The translations under genes and the position numbers were made by a program. Below the pieces are notes generated by a model, which worked only from the letters and a program-made list of their open reading frames with translations, was not told the origin of the DNA and did no database searches. A stretch of DNA of 64,000 bases. It comes from Chlorella sorokiniana (lineage: Eukaryota > Chlorophyta > Trebouxiophyceae > Chlorellales > Chlorellaceae). Position 1 is the first letter of the stretch, and each line of letters starts with the position of its first letter. The stretch spans positions 310,001 to 374,000 of the forward strand of contig CP084617.1 of NCBI GenBank assembly GCA_025917655.1, given 5' to 3'. Below are positions 11,516-25,200 of the stretch, piece after piece.

Positions 11516-14346
11516 TCACATGTCGCCCAGCTCGTAAACCCGCCGTGCCGCCGCCTCCGCCTTGTACCCTCGCGACAGGCCCAGCATGTCTGCGCCCAGC
11601 AGCAGGCCGGGCGCGTAGTCCCGCAGCTCCTTGGCGTTGCCGTTTGTGAGGAAGAGGGCGCGCAGCACGGCGTCCTCGGGCGGGGTCTGCAGCAGCGGGC
11701 GGAAGGCGGGGGCGGGCGTCAAGGCACGGCCAGCAGGGGGCGGGGCGTGCAGCGAGGGCGCGCAGCTGGAGCGAGAGCTGAGTGGTTGGTGCATCCGTGA
11801 GGAAGCGAGTGCGAGGTGCGCTGGTGGGCAGCTGCGGCTGGCTGAAGGGCTGGAGCTGGGGCTGGCTGAAGGGCTGGGGGTGGGCTGTGACAACAGCACG
11901 CTGCAGCGTGGTGGCAGAAAGGCTCGGCAGCCGACCGTTCCGGCGGCGGGAGGACCTGTGCCGCCGACAGCGGAAGCGGCGGCAGCGGCCGGCGCTCACC
12001 TCCCTCCCGCAGCACCACATCGATGAAGTAGTCTGCCGCCGCCGCCACCTCGCCCGCCGCGTAGCGCGGCACGGCGTGGCGGCTGCCCCGCGGGCGCGGC
12101 ACGCGCAGCCGCGGCGACAGGTGGCCGCCCAGGGAGGGCGCCGCCACGGCGACGCCGTTGGCGGGCGCAGGCTGCTCCAGCACGCGGAAGGCTTTCACCT
12201 GCCGAGGGGCCCAGGGGGGTGAGTGGCGCTGCTGTGAGCCGCCAGACGGAAACCCTCACGCCGGATGCCGCCGTGAGGCCGCCCAGCAGCGACATCCCCA
12301 CAACACCTGCCAGCAGCGGCAGGCTCATGCAGCGGGGCAGATCGACAAACAACAGGCATGATCAGAGGACCCAAACGCAAACTTTGCGGATGGAGCCGGA
12401 ACAGGCGGGGGCGGCGGCTCGGCGGCCCGCACCAGGCGCAGCTCGTCTGGCGCCAGCTGGCGGCGGTGGAAGTTGTGCACCGACTCGTAGTAGCCCGTGT
12501 GCGAGTAGAGCACGTTGTAATCGTCCACGGCGACGAGGGTGCGAGCCTCCTTCGTGGCCGCCAGCGCCTCCTTGGCGGCGATGGCGGCGGCGACGACGGC
12601 GGCGGGCTTGGCAGCGCGGTCCAGCCCCGCCTCGACCGCCTCGGCCAGCGGCTGGCCCGACGGGGTGCGCAGCGCGGGCAGCGCGTCGGCGTGGGCGTCG
12701 CGCAGGCTGGACAGGATCCAGCGGGCGGCCTCGGGCGTGTCCCACAGCCCGTCCTCTGCCTTGGAGTAAGTGCCACCTGCGCAGCGAGAGGAAGGGAAAT
12801 GGGGTGGAGGGCTGGGGCGGCTCAGTGCGTGGGGCCGCGGGGACGGTGAGAGGGGCGGCTTCAGGACCAGGGGGCGGCAACAGTGAGTGGCAGGGCGGCA
12901 GGGCGGTGGGACGGCAGTTGCAGCGCAAGGGCATGCAGGCTCAGCGCGGTGATTGGTTGGTGACCCAACAAAAGCGATGCGCCAGCGGGCGCCCGCCTGT
13001 GGCTGCTGCCACCCGCAGCAAGGTGGCCGCTCACTCTGCACGAGGGAGAAGGCGGAGGGGAGGTAGAGCGCCACGTAGCCGTTGGCGCGGGCCCAGGCCA
13101 CCAGCGAGAACAGCGCGACCGACTTGCCGCTGCCCGCCCAGCCGTCGAGGTACAGCTGGCCGCTGCGGCTGGCCTGCAGCACCGTGTGAACAAAAGGAAC
13201 CGGACGGGAAGCTTGTTGTCTTGGTTTCGGGAGGACGGCCAAGGGTGTGAAAGGGCAGCCTTTGTCTGCAGAGCACTGCTGCTGAGCCAGGGCTGGAGAA
13301 GGGTGACGAGCGTTTGTGCGCGGTTCAGAGCGGGGATGGTTAAAACGAGGGGGCCGCACCTGCACACGCTCAGCAAGGTCCCGCATGCACCGCCGCGCCA
13401 TGAGGCTGCGCCGCCCGACCACTCCCACTCCAGCTGCACGCCCTTGCACCCAAAGTTGGGCTCCCTCACGCCCTCACCCTGCGGCGGCGGGAAACCTTGG
13501 CGTGTGAAACGCGGCGCGGCACAGCGTGGGCATGCGGGCGGGACAGGCCAGCGGCGCTTCTGGCACCCCCGCCACCCTGCCCCGTCAGGAGCCCTGCAGC
13601 TTCCGGGGCAGTGCATGCTGCGCTGCGCTGCACGTCTGCAGCGGTCGCGTTCTGCAGCAGGGCCCGGCACGCAGCAGCAGCGTGCAGCTGGAACAACTTG
13701 CGACGACACCCGCAAGCGCACCTTCAGCAGCGGGTCTTCATAGTACTGCTTGGTGGCCTCGGGCAGTACGCCCTGGGGCACATCGAAGTACAGGTTCTCC
13801 CCACATCCAGCAGCCGCGACACCGGCAGGCCAGCCAGGCGGGCACTGCGGGCGCGGGCAGCAGGGGCGGTGGTGGGCTGGGCATTTGCCAAGAGACAGAG
13901 GCTCAGAGGGCACGCAGGCTGGCTGGGTTCTAGCTTGCCGACCGACAGGCATGACAAGCAGGACCAGAAGATGCTGCAAGAAGATGCTGCAAAGCATATC
14001 ACCTGTTTGCTGCTGCCGATGCAGTGGCATCCGGCTTTGCCTGCTGCGCCGCTGCCTTGCCAGCCGGCTTCTTGGCGGCAGCCTTGGAGGCGGCTGCCGC
14101 CTGCTTCTTACCAGGCTGCTTCTGCTGCTGCTGCTGCTTTGGTGTTCCTTTTTGCGCTCCTGGCGCTGCAGCAGCGTGCTGCTGCTGGTTGCCAGCGCTG
14201 CCGCCGCTTGCGTTGGTCGCCGCCTGCCGCAACTGCGCAAGCGCCCATGGTGCGCTGCTGCACAGCCTCAGGTCTGCAGCATTCGATTCCCTCGTGCCGG
14301 CCGAATGTCTAACATGCGCCAGCAACTGCACTAGCCGGCCCCTCAT
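11516..14346 (-). CDS. Mitochondrial small-subunit ribosomal protein mS29 (DAP3 family)
   Basis: Structural GTPase-like protein of the mitochondrial ribosome small subunit. Exons on the minus strand: 14346-14003, 13844-13722, 13478-13360, 13173-13035, 12776-12433, 12198-12000 and 11686-11516 (TGA), about 479 residues. The start MRGRLVQLLAHVRHSAG resembles a mitochondrial presequence, followed by a Gln/Lys/Ala-rich linker. The P-loop GWAGSGKS lies near residue 207 and a Walker B-like LVAVDDYNVLY near 327; the order LPEATKQYYEDPLL, RSLMARRCMRDL, P-loop, then DDYN is typical of DAP3. Frame jumps of one base occur in exons 2 and 3 (at G-rich runs) and at the start of exon 7, while the splice phases remain compatible with repair. 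The ATG at 14346 is preferred over an upstream in-frame one because of the presequence. It diverges from the mutase gene 460 bases away. Confidence 0.85.
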
Positions 14347-20809: not shown

Positions 20810-20813
20810 ATGG
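20801..20813 (+). promoter_or_regulatory. Strong Kozak context at heliorhodopsin start
   Basis: The start codon at 20810 sits in GCCGCCACCATGG, a full match to the classical eukaryotic consensus, which supports this ATG as the true start. Confidence 0.7.
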
Positions 20814-22797
20814 CTCCCCTGACCTTCAGCCGCCTGCGTTTGTGGAACGTCGGCGCCGGCCTGCTGCAGCTGGTGACTGGCGCGGCCATCCTGGGCATCA
20901 CGCCTTATGACGACAAGAGCAAGCTGCCCTGGTATACATTTTTCATTGCCAGCTGGTCTCGGGATGACGATGCGGCCGGCTTTTACAGGTGACGCCAGAT
21001 GCCGCCTCTTCCGCTGCCGGTCTTGCTGCATCCGCCATCCCTGCCTGCGTTGCTGGTACATGCGTGTCCCACTCTCGGTGTACCCCCAGGCCACACGAGC
21101 TCACACGCAAGCCGCGTCGCTCGCTGCCTGCCCCTGCAGCCCCGCCCCCAAGCAGGTCGCCAGCTTTCCCATCGGCGTGTGGAGCGGCGTCTTCCTGCTT
21201 CTCTCGGCGGCGGACCACCTGCTGGTGGTGCTGCCGCGGATCAACGCCTACTACAACCGCCAGCTGTGCCTGAACCGCAACCCCTTCCGCTGGGCAGAGT
21301 ACTCAGGTGGGTGGCTGGTTATGTTGGGGAGAAAATGCGAGCGGGGCAGAGCAGCTGGGCTGCACACAGGAGGGGAGGGCACTCGGTGCCAGCATGGGCC
21401 GGCGGCGGCGACACCAGCAAGTGGCCGCCACTCACCCCGCCGGAGGCAATGCTGCTCGCGGCCGGATTGCGCAACCGACCTGCGCCCGCACCTCCTTCCG
21501 TTGCCTGCCCGCAGTCAGCGCCAGCCTGATGAGCGTGATGATTGCGCAGCTGTGCGGCGTCACCGACATCCACCTGCTCTTCACGCTGGCCGCCCTCATG
21601 GGCTCCACCATGCTCTTCGGCCACCTCATGGAAACCGCCAACGGCGCCCGCATCCCCACCTTCACCTACACCTCAGACCCCAAGGCCCCGCCCGCCCCAG
21701 CCAAGGCCGGCCCCGCCGGCCTGCCCCGCCTTCATCACCGACGGCGCCAGCGGCGGCGGGGGGGCGGGGCGCCGCGCGCGCGTCGACTGGACGCCGTTTG
21801 TGATGGGCTGCTGGCCCTTTCTGGCTGTGGAGCTGGTCACCGCCTGCTTCTTCTTCCAGGCGGTCTCCAACGGCGACCCACCCGACTTTGTGTGGTGAGG
21901 TGGCGGCGTGGCTTTGATGGGAGGCCGCTCTGGCTCGGGGTGGCTTGGGGGTTCGCTGGTCGGGGCTCTGCTCTGCTCCTGAGGGGGTGGGGAAGACGGA
22001 CGCCGCGCAGAACACCCCCGCCATTTGTGGCGGCGAAAGGCGCATGCTCGGTGCATGCAGCCTCATGCCCTCGGCGAGCTGCCCCGGCCAGTTTGGGCCG
22101 CTCCCCCCGCCGAACACACAACCCCCACCCTCTTGACCCCCTCCCGCACACACAGCCATCCCACCTAGCCCCCCTTCCCCGCCCCCGCAGGAGCCTGTTC
22201 TTCATCCTCTCCCTGCTCTACATCCTGTTTGCCGTGAACCAGGTCCTGCAGTTCCGCCAGGTCGGTGGCTGGGTTGCACTGAGCATGGGATGCGCACACG
22301 GTGGTGTTTGTGTGTTTGTCTTTTGGGGGCGGGGCGCCACTGCAGGGGCACGGAGTCGTTAGGCATGGCAGCGTGTGGCGCTTCCGCGCCGCGGGAGAGC
22401 GGCGGCACCCCGGGCCTGGCTGCCCACAGCCTGGCTGCGCCCGCAACCCGCGCCGCTGCGGCCCGCCCTCCTGCCGCAGGTGCGGGGCTGGCGCGGCTTT
22501 GCCCAGGCCGAGTGGTGGTACATCATCCTGTCCCTCGCCAGCAAGCAGCTGCTGGCGTGGATCACGTACGGTGCGTACTGGCGGTACTGCTGGGTACTGC
22601 TGGGGGACCGGGAGGAACCGAGGGCAGGGGGCGGGGAGGTGCGCAGGTAGCAGCCTGGATGCTGGCTGGTTCTGGAGGGGGTGCCGGGGGCGCTGAGCAC
22701 GAAGGTTTGTCGTGGGCTGGTCTGTGGGCGCTGAGCAGGCCTCTCCCCTTTTCCCTCTGCAGGCGGCAGCAGGCGCTTCGAGGGCGAGGGCGCGTGA
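20810..22797 (+). CDS. Heliorhodopsin (retinal-binding seven-helix membrane protein)
   Basis: Six exons: 20810-20988, 21140-21306, 21515-21894, 22191-22260, 22480-22570 and 22763-22797 (TGA), about 306 residues. Signature stretches: LRLWNVGAGLLQLVTG in helix 1; SGVFLLLSAADHLLV in helix 2; RWAEYSVSASLMSVMIAQL in helix 3, with Glu about 113 at the heliorhodopsin counterion position; and SLASKQLLAWITYG in the last helix, with Lys about 287 as retinal Schiff-base lysine. The SASLM pattern after WAEY and the K-LLAW motif separate it from type 1 microbial rhodopsins. By comparison with bacterial heliorhodopsins remembered without alignment, the helix-1 His position appears to be Gln while the helix-2 His is kept. 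Exon 3 carries a one-base frame jump near 21725 (C run), in a variable loop rich in Pro/Ala/Gly; the next junction confirms the later frame. Function unknown; photosensory or membrane-regulatory roles are proposed for the family. Confidence 0.88.
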
Positions 22798-23216: not shown

Positions 23217-25200
23217 TCAGCGGGAGGGCAGGCGGGGCGGGCGCGGTGGAGGCCCGCCGGTCTTCGCCGCTGCCCCGCAATGGCGCAAGCTTGGGGCTCG
23301 AGGCCTAGCGGGTTGGCGTCCAGCCACGCGGCATGCAGCCAGACGTGTTGGAAAACCCCACAACCGTCGCTGGCTGACCCAGGCGGACAGCCTCCACGCA
23401 CGCTGAGGACACTGCGAGAATGCACACAGCCGCTGCCGCTCCCGCACCGCAGCATGCCCACCTGGCAGGGGGACAGCAGACGACAGGGCGACGGGGTGGT
23501 AGGAAGGCAAGAGGCTGGTTGGGAAGGCACATATCACCGACGTCGATGGTGTCGGAGGCCTTGCGGAAGTCGCAGAAGGCCGCCAGCGCCCAGCGGCCCG
23601 CACGGCGGAGGAGGTGGGGGAGGAGCTGCAGGGCCATGATGTTGTCGCCGATGCGGCGGCCGGGCACAAAGGCAACCTGCTCTGGGTCGATGACGGAGGG
23701 GAGGCAGGGCCCAAGGCGGCGGGCCAGCACAAGCGCATAGAGGCGATAGTCGGCGCCGGGCAGGGTGATGGGGCGGTAGCAGGAGGGGTCAGCGCGGTCG
23801 CCAGCCTTGAGGAGGAAGGTGATGAGCCCCTCATGGAATGAGCGCGGCAGCTGGCCGGTGGAGGCAATGGCGGTGAAGAGGCGGGAGAAGAGGGGCAAAG
23901 GCGGTGCGGAAGTGGCGGTACTGGTCTGGGGGACGCCGTCCAGGCCAGGCGACTTGCCCGGCTTGACGCGCCACATGGCGCGCAGCACCTCCTCAGCAGA
24001 AAAGGCAGCCTCGCCCAGGGAAGCTGCCTGCTGCTCGGTGAGGCGGCGGAGGTGGTGGGTGCCGCAGAAATGGCCGCAGCTGCCGGGAGGTGGACGGGTT
24101 GTGCCGCTCGCCGCAATGCAGCCAGGTGTAGCGGCGCAGCTGGGCACCCTCGGCGACGCCGGCCGAGTGGGCTGCCCGCCGCCACGCCTCGTGCGCTGCA
24201 ACAAGCTCGGGCAGGGCGCCATCGTCCTCGGCCTCCCACCGCTGAGCAGCTGCCTCGAGGGTGGCAAGGGCGGCGGCGGCGCGGGGGCAAGCTCTCGGCT
24301 GGCGCGGTGCAGGCGGCAGCAGAAGATGTAGAGGACGCGCTGGAACCTGGGCCGCCACTGAACGGAGGCAGCAGGGTCCTCCGGGGGCGCCAAGGCAGCC
24401 AGCCAGTCCCGCAGCTGCGAGGACAGAGCGGGGCGGGAGAGGAGGCCGAGGCGGAGGCGGCGGCGCTGGCGGCCGACGCCCGGAGGCCGGGTGCCGAGGC
24501 TGGAGGAAGACGGGGTTGTGGTCGGCGACGGGGCGCGCGCCACGGTGGCGCTGGCGGCGTAGGGGCGCAAGCGGGCGCAAGGTGGGGATCAGGTGTGAAG
24601 GTAAAGTCGCCGCCCCACACCAGCTGTCGCGAGGCTGCAACGGCAGCCGCTGCCAGCGGGCCGAGGCTGGTCTGGATGTAGGTGCAGCGGGCGCTGGGCT
24701 CATTGGACAGGTGGACGCCGCAGAGGTGGAGGCGGTGGCCTGACCAGGAGACGGAGACGGCGGTGAACCGGCCGCTGGGACAGAGCTGCGCCACGGGGCA
24801 GACACCTCCCGCTGGCGAGGAGGGTGCGCGGGACGACGAGTGCCGCGAAGGCTGAGGCAGAGGGGGCATCACACGGCGTGTGTGTGTGTATGGGGGGGGG
24901 GGGGAGGGGGAGTGCTGAAGGGCCACAGGTAAGTGGGTGGGGGGTGGGGGTGGGGGTGGGGGGTGGGGGGTTGGGGGGGGGGGGGGCGCGCTCGCCTGCG
25001 CTGCTGCTGCTGTGCGCATTGGCGTCCATGACGTCCACGGGCTGCGACTCCGCGGGGAAGGGGGACCGCCGCACAGGAGGGGGCGCGGCGCTGCGAGAGG
25101 CGCAAGTGGCAGCGGGGCCTCGGCCAGCTCCTCTGGACACGTCGGCGTTCATGGACTCTATTCCCGCCAAGAGGCACCGCAAAAATGCTGGGGCCGCAAC
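23217..25200 (-). mobile_element. Degenerate non-LTR retrotransposon (LINE): endonuclease plus truncated reverse transcriptase
   Basis: Read on the minus strand, the order is endonuclease then reverse transcriptase. The APE-type endonuclease half includes HRLHLCGVHLSNEPSA and SRQLVWGGDFTF (about 24725-24590), then DHNPVFLQ (about 24530). The RT half is open in another frame: PGKSPGLDGVPQ (about 23960), GLITFLLKAGDRADPSCYRP, PEQVAFVPGRRIGDNI, then motif A as FCDFRKASDTID (about 23575-23540). After motif A the similarity ends; the GxRQGCPL and ADD motifs that should follow are not seen down to 23217, so the element is dead. At least one frame break separates the two halves. Loss of the 3' coding end is atypical for LINEs, which are usually 5'-truncated. 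Clade not assigned. The outer limits are approximate. Confidence 0.82.
24885..24987 (+). repeat. G-rich low-complexity tract inside the LINE
   Basis: Long G runs with TGGG and GTGTGT interruptions, capable in principle of G-quadruplex formation. In the LINE sense strand it reads as a Pro/Thr/His-rich stretch in the endonuclease N-terminal region, so it probably expanded after insertion. Confidence 0.7.

What the first reader, a model, noticed from the sequence alone, without database searches (positions are those of the whole stretch)
20810..22797. Spliced algal heliorhodopsin with a Gln where the helix-1 His is expected
The gene encodes about 306 residues with the family's WAEY counterion Glu and SKQLLAW retinal lysine, split by five introns. 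In bacterial heliorhodopsins as I recall them, a His in helix 1 and another in helix 2 frame the Schiff-base pocket. Here the helix-1 site reads GLLQLVTG while the helix-2 His (SAADHLL) is kept. This could shift colour or proton handling. A Pro/Ala/Gly-rich insertion near residues 165-190 is also unusual.
Basis: partly seen in the sequence, partly recalled or inferred. Interest (0 to 1): 0.75.

Follow-up and report, generated by a model that had tools for sequence, protein, structure and literature searches.

The report
Ordinary green-algal heliorhodopsin gene
This is a normal spliced rhodopsin gene of a Chlorella-like green alga, one of two copies found in its genome; the glutamine that looked odd is what related green algae usually carry there, and the break in its reading frame looks like a sequencing error.

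Summary
The gene is real: six exons (20810-22797), five GT-AG introns, Pfam Heliorhodopsin 209 bits (cut-off 26.7), with Lys286, Glu113, His86, and Gln20 at the 48C12 His23 site. Gln20 is no oddity: the paralog on another contig has it, as do 11 of 12 green-type sequences (window and paralog included) and 52 of 82 eukaryote-type rows (25 of 82 have His; prokaryote-type 158 of 184). As assembled, exon 3 changes frame once. The paralog and a near-identical metagenomic ORF are open there; against the metagenomic copy the window is shorter at 10 of 10 length differences, nearly all beside G/C runs, so consensus error is likelier than a pseudogene. The Pro/Ala/Gly-rich stretch is the D-E loop, 44-73 residues in 12 of 12 green-type rows and at most 33 in the other 254. 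The published His80-His23-Gln26-Trp246 switch cannot work unchanged, since both middle residues differ. Colour is more likely tuned by Ser285 (A240S: 5 nm blue shift reported in 48C12) and Tyr251, at the retinal-stacking Phe206 site, which is Asp in 68 of 82 eukaryote-type rows. Photochemistry and function are untested.

The parts
20810..20988 (+). Exon 1 of the heliorhodopsin gene: start codon, helix A with Asn13, Gln20 (48C12 His23 site) and Thr23 (48C12 Gln26 site)
   Evidence: GT donor; same exon in the paralog
21140..21306 (+). Exon 2: end of the A-B loop, helix B with Ser82 and His86, start of helix C with Arg110 and counterion Glu113
   Evidence: AG/GT borders
21515..21894 (+). Exon 3: helices C-D, long D-E loop, helix E; carries the one change of reading frame (about 21720-21728)
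   Evidence: open in one frame in the paralog and in metagenomic ORF P0007
21673..21784 (+). Pro/Ala/Gly-rich D-E loop, long in green-type heliorhodopsins; cytoplasmic if the family's topology holds
   Evidence: the matching part of the C. vulgaris model has low confidence
22191..22260 (+). Exon 4: helix F with Leu247 (V2HeR3 Glu191 site), Tyr251 (48C12 Phe206 site) and Gln258 (48C12 Gln213)
   Evidence: Gln258 read from the helix-F alignment printed. Residue numbers after about 184 are those of the read-through protein
22480..22570 (+). Exon 5: helix G with Glu275, Ser282, Ser285, retinal Lys286, Trp291
22763..22797 (+). Exon 6: C-terminal tail and stop codon
20989..21139 (+). Intron 1
   Evidence: GT-AG
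21307..21514 (+). Intron 2
   Evidence: GT-AG; read through in metagenomic ORF P0007
21895..22190 (+). Intron 3
   Evidence: GT-AG
22261..22479 (+). Intron 4
   Evidence: GT-AG
22571..22762 (+). Intron 5
   Evidence: GT-AG

Best explanation
An ordinary nuclear heliorhodopsin gene of a Chlorella-like green alga, one of two paralogs found, under purifying selection. Gln20 is the inherited green-algal state, not a mutation of this gene. The frame change in exon 3 is most likely a consensus error at G/C runs of the assembly. Inferred mechanism: light isomerises the retinal on Lys286; the Schiff-base proton passes to the Glu113/water/His86 cluster and stays inside, so the protein is a slow light sensor, not a pump. 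Because Gln cannot take up the proton as His can, and Thr23 replaces the Gln26 partner of Trp246, the extracellular His23-Gln26-Trp246 switch proposed for prokaryotic proteins does not operate in that form. The signal more probably leaves on the cytoplasmic side, through the Tyr98/Arg110/Glu155/Glu275 network next to the long D-E loop. Shown: gene, paralog, residues and their distribution. Inferred: everything about the photocycle and signalling.
For: Pfam heliorhodopsin 209.4 bits; model of the C. vulgaris orthologue, mean pLDDT 84.3; its ten best PDB matches, the only ones with E under 0.001, are all heliorhodopsins, TM 0.84-0.90 by target length and 0.68-0.72 by query length. Gln at the His23 site in 11 of 12 green-type rows, window and paralog included, in 52 of 82 eukaryote-type and 1 of 184 prokaryote-type rows, and in 0 of the 77 named prokaryotic loci used of 80 fetched. 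Frame: paralog open; two near-identical metagenomic ORFs share 458 of 461 matched codons, introns included, yet 10 of 10 length differences are losses in the window, 8 of them in introns; dN 0.072 and dS 0.497 before the frame change, dN 0.032 and dS 0.517 after it, loop left out. No ion-transport glutamate: Leu247 at the V2HeR3 Glu191 site.
Against: No reads or transcripts were seen, so the frame change could be real in this strain. The metagenomic copy could hold errors of its own, though it is the one that is open. Sensor function and a cytoplasmic output are inference; nothing I read describes the function of a green-algal heliorhodopsin. That His86 is kept does not show that it takes the proton. 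Gln20 may be compensated by waters that no call could show. The eukaryote-type class rests on similarity to 18 seeds, not on taxonomy.
Confidence: 0.6

Rival explanations
1. The window copy is a young pseudogene: the exon 3 frame change is real in this strain and the C9 paralog does the work.
For: The assembled sequence does change frame and an intact paralog exists.
Against: All 10 length differences from a near-identical copy are losses in the window, 8 of 10 in introns and 9 of 10 beside a G or C run of 4-7, as consensus errors would give; the part after the shift is still under strong constraint; all splice borders are intact.
Confidence: 0.15
2. Gln20 is a functional specialisation that changes colour or proton storage.
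For: H23F slows the 48C12 photocycle strongly (PMC9726877 passages); His23 reorients in the low-pH forms and is part of a proposed signal path (PMC9385722 passages).
Against: Gln is also common outside green algae (52 of 82 eukaryote-type rows), so it is no special trait of this gene; H23F still forms M; the colour sites found by mutation are others (PMC7807009 passages).
Confidence: 0.2
3. The protein is a light-gated proton transporter like the viral V2HeR3.
For: V2HeR3 transports protons, and coccolithovirus heliorhodopsins stand near those of haptophytes and other algae (PMC9448325 passages).
Against: Leu247 and Tyr251 stand where V2HeR3 has Glu191 and, by spacing, Trp195; the paper calls Glu191 the hallmark of ion transport, and the E. 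huxleyi host protein, which has that glutamate, showed no ion transport.
Confidence: 0.05

Closest known systems
Chlorella vulgaris hypothetical protein ACK3TF_001284 (P0001)
   Same: 73% identity over 99% of the query; Gln at the helix-1 site, Thr three residues on, Tyr and Ser at the 206 and 240 sites, long D-E loop
   Different: Loop sequence; the database protein is in one frame
Paralog in the same genome, contig C9 708113-709991
   Same: Six exons, five introns, Gln20, His86, Glu113, Lys286; 91% identity over 244 columns
   Different: Frame intact; lower third-position G+C (0.74-0.78 against 0.88-0.92); introns only 45-53% alike; flanks not shared
48C12 heliorhodopsin (PDB 6su3, 6uh3)
   Same: Asn16, Ser76, His80, Tyr92, Arg104, Glu107, Ser111, Met115, Glu149, Glu230, Ser237, Lys241, Trp246 all kept
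   Different: His23 to Gln, Gln26 to Thr, Phe206 to Tyr, Ala240 to Ser; D-E loop of 56 residues in the read-through protein
V2HeR3 of Emiliania huxleyi virus 202
   Same: Heliorhodopsin family, as named by PMC9448325; its sequence was not fetched
   Different: The window lacks Glu at the Glu191 site and Trp four residues on (positions taken from PMC9448325 passages via TaHeR numbering)
Heliorhodopsin-like proteins of betachloroviruses, which infect Chlorella-type algae
   Same: Heliorhodopsin homologs reported in 23 of 25 betachloroviruses (PMC12390592 passages)
   Different: The paper reports Asn in place of the retinal Lys; the window gene keeps Lys286 and has introns. Their sequences were not fetched or compared

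Membership tests
Heliorhodopsin (Pfam PF18761) | Score above the curated cut-off | tested here: met
   209.4 bits against 26.7, for the read-through protein
Heliorhodopsin (Pfam PF18761) | Retinal Lys in helix G and counterion Glu in helix C | tested here: met
   Lys286 = Lys241, Glu113 = Glu107
Heliorhodopsin (Pfam PF18761) | Seven-helix fold with a beta-stranded A-B loop | tested here: met
   Model of the C. vulgaris orthologue, not of the window protein: eight helical segments, read by me as seven membrane helices plus a short one at 93-104, and strands 38-45 and 63-71; ten best PDB matches are heliorhodopsins
Heliorhodopsin (Pfam PF18761) | N-terminus in the cytoplasm (inverted topology) | not tested
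   taken from PMC6951262 (first of two parts of the text read)
Heliorhodopsin (Pfam PF18761) | Retinal binding and light response | not testable with these tools
   needs expression
Ion-transporting viral heliorhodopsins | Glu at the V2HeR3 Glu191 site in helix F | tested here: not met
   Leu247

The most novel reading that the evidence does not exclude
Eukaryote-type heliorhodopsins are a differently wired class: the His23/Gln26 pair of the proposed signal path occurs in 0 of 82 of them against 158 of 184 prokaryote-type proteins, and the retinal-stacking Phe206 is Asp in 68 of 82, Tyr in the Chlorella group. Green algae added a long, probably unstructured cytoplasmic D-E loop as an output arm. 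If so, the mechanism drawn from prokaryotic crystal structures does not carry over to eukaryotes.
Probability: 0.35. Interest if true: 0.55.

Novelty: new member of a known kind. Interest (0 to 1): 0.3.

Why it matters
It shows that the helix-1 histidine, prominent in the studied bacterial and archaeal proteins, is not general in the family, so models of the switch built on 48C12 and TaHeR should be tested on a eukaryotic protein. The C. vulgaris orthologue, or the intact paralog here, would be a direct subject. It also warns that reading frames in this assembly need checking at G/C runs.

Tried and rejected
A tiny intron to explain the exon 3 frame was rejected: no GT from 21640 to 21781, and the paralog has no intron there. 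An alternative first exon restoring His was rejected: the paralog and full-length relatives of the Chlorella group begin alike with Gln. A segmental duplication was rejected: between 22 kb of C9 and the window, only the gene and a few bases beside it match. Viral origin was tested only weakly: two viral-contig scans gave two loci and none, and those two loci were used in no count. Published viral kin exist: betachlorovirus homologs that lack the Lys (PMC12390592 passages) and heliorhodopsin genes apparently without introns in mobile elements of the green alga Cymbomonas (PMC10675990 passages); the window gene has five introns and a Lys, and I did not compare their sequences. Neighbours: 20 of the 36 ORFs of 220 residues or more listed were scanned; two gave a Pfam match, no functional hint. 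A Pfam check of a type-1 rhodopsin exon failed on stop codons and was not pursued. A short FITD-like motif in the loop (10 of 17 loops, counted by eye, several near-copies; 5 of the 22 rows given were dropped) is too weak to claim. Papers: a search for heliorhodopsin with H23Q, H25Q, 'histidine is replaced', 'eukaryotic heliorhodopsins' or 'eukaryotic HeRs' found one paper, by the last term only; broader listings showed no title or abstract start on it. Most of those papers were not opened, and figures and supplements were not open to me, so the His-to-Gln difference may well be in print.

Full report
Gene. Six exons with GT-AG borders span 20810-22797: 20810-20988, 21140-21306, 21515-21894, 22191-22260, 22480-22570, 22763-22797. 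The read-through protein scores 209.4 bits with Pfam Heliorhodopsin, cut-off 26.7. In the PDB six distinct heliorhodopsin chains match, among them 48C12 and TaHeR, and three weak contactin chains that I take as chance. Residue numbers after about 184 are those of the read-through protein.

Frame. Exons 1-2 and the first part of exon 3 are in one frame; from about 21728 the homologous protein continues in another. No GT lies from 21640 to 21781, so no ordinary intron helps. A metagenomic ORF (P0007, JGI) reads through intron 2 and exon 3 in one frame, and a second ORF (P0052) covers introns and exons further on. Aligned to the window with frame changes allowed, 236 of 239 and 222 of 222 matched codons are identical, introns included. 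The cheapest alignment needs 10 length differences, all 10 with bases missing in the window, 8 of them in introns. The longest run nearby is G or C, 4-7 long, at 9 of 10; at the tenth it is a T run of 4, five bases from the next difference. Between window and paralog, introns are only 45-53% alike, so this metagenomic copy is from almost the same strain. One-directional losses at homopolymers fit long-read consensus errors; that signature is recalled, and how this genome was sequenced is unknown to me. Between window and paralog dN is 0.072 and dS 0.497 before the shift (495 bases), 0.032 and 0.517 after it (303 bases), with the loop left out, so the part after the shift has not relaxed. P0007 and P0052 show the same longest-contig length, 79,308 bases; that they come from one contig is inferred.

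Paralog. A second heliorhodopsin gene is on C9 at 708113-709991 with the same exon plan and an open frame of 312 residues. On the tree the two are sisters (SH-aLRT 98); flanks are not shared. The nearest named relatives (C. vulgaris 73%, C. sorokiniana 68%, Micractinium 67%) place the alga near Chlorella; the species was not determined.

The helix-1 site. I aligned 292 sequences: 208 database proteins, 80 named prokaryotic loci, 48C12, TaHeR, window and paralog. The 80 loci are the best of 199 found with an actinobacteria-rich query, and the database lists were capped at the best 120 of 216 and of 454, so the sample is not even. Before any dropping, the site has His 188, Gln 56 and Leu 24 of 280 rows with a letter. 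After dropping 26 rows without helix 1, His80, the counterion or the lysine, 266 remain, including at least one intron-bearing misaligned row (P0043). Split by similarity to 18 eukaryote-type seeds or to the prokaryotic set (a similarity class, not taxonomy), prokaryote-type rows have His 158, Leu 19, Phe 3, Val 2, Cys 1, Gln 1 of 184; eukaryote-type rows have Gln 52, His 25 and five others of 82. The pair His23/Gln26 is in 158 of 184 and 0 of 82. Named Gln-bearers are C. vulgaris, Micractinium, C. sorokiniana, an Ulva-labelled protein, Chlamydomonas sp. UWO 241, Balamuthia, Pinguiococcus and Gloeochaete; Leptocylindrus has His and Salpingoeca rosetta Asn. On a quick tree of 187 rows (75% identity thinning of the 266, the site's own columns left out) Gln needs 8 changes. 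The 12 green-type rows are window, paralog, five named algae and five unnamed proteins; the grouping of P0008, P0009, P0151 and P0152 with the Chlorella group is not well supported on that tree.

Other pocket sites. At the 48C12 Phe206 site, one of the two aromatics beside retinal (PMC6951262), prokaryote-type rows have Phe 180 of 184, eukaryote-type rows Asp 68 and Tyr 10 of 82; the eight Chlorella-group rows all have Tyr. The stretch aligns without gaps in the rows printed. Ser285 stands at the Ala240 site; A240S is reported to shift 48C12 5 nm to the blue (PMC7807009 passages). That study says it left out the eukaryote and virus clade.

Loop. From Glu155 to the helix-E glycine there are 56 residues in the window (as typed), 63 in the paralog, 44-73 in the 12 green-type rows, and at most 33, median 16, in the other 254. 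In the C. vulgaris model 188-204 has pLDDT under 50. With the N-terminus in the cytoplasm, as reported for the family, this loop is cytoplasmic.

Mechanism. [quoted passage not shown] the low-pH TaHeR paper calls the same switch conserved between TaHeR and 48C12 (PMC9385722 passages). Here the two middle members differ while the ends are kept. I infer proton storage at Glu113/water/His86 and a cytoplasmic output. Leu247 at the Glu191 site argues against ion transport.

Verdict. The wider pattern in eukaryote-type proteins is more interesting than the finding itself.

Noticed in passing
window 22191-22260 (Tyr251) and the 266-row alignment: The retinal-stacking Phe206 of prokaryote-type heliorhodopsins (180 of 184) is Asp in 68 of 82 eukaryote-type proteins and Tyr in the Chlorella group: a carboxylate in the retinal pocket, and a sharper divide than the helix-1 site.
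   Followed up: partly
48C12 sites 23 and 26 in L012-L018, L020-L022, L029 and P0100, P0125, P0139, P0142, P0143, P0150, P0193, P0208: Nineteen of 20 rows with Leu at the His23 site have Glu at the Gln26 site; the named ones are Micromonospora, Verrucosispora and other actinobacteria. A natural variant that puts a carboxylate in the proposed switch.
   Followed up: no
window 21150-22780: Compared with near-identical metagenomic ORFs the assembly is short at 10 of 10 length differences, mostly beside G/C runs; other genes of the assembly may show false frameshifts.
   Followed up: partly
window 23308-24588, minus strand: Weak reverse-transcriptase match (26.8 bits, under the Pfam cut-off of 29.6): perhaps a retroelement downstream of the gene.
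   Followed up: no
window 12328-13473, minus strand: Part of a mitochondrial ribosomal DAP3-type gene upstream (47.4 bits).
   Followed up: no
L008 and L009, G000:C7:2523360-2524207: Two exon-sized matches to type-1 rhodopsin (Pfam PF01036, 26.4 and 25.9 bits, just over the cut-off of 24.6) in the same genome: it probably also has a classical microbial rhodopsin.
   Followed up: no
P0163 and P0166 (tig-named eukprot proteins): Two sister heliorhodopsins (support 94), one with Gln and one with His at the helix-1 site; both names start with 'tig' (which I recall from Cyanophora), so they could be a natural pair in one species for testing the site.
   Followed up: no
P0005 (eukprot scaffold2.g6951.t1): A green-type heliorhodopsin listed with a second Pfam domain, PF04832, in one protein: a fusion, or two genes merged by gene prediction.
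   Followed up: no
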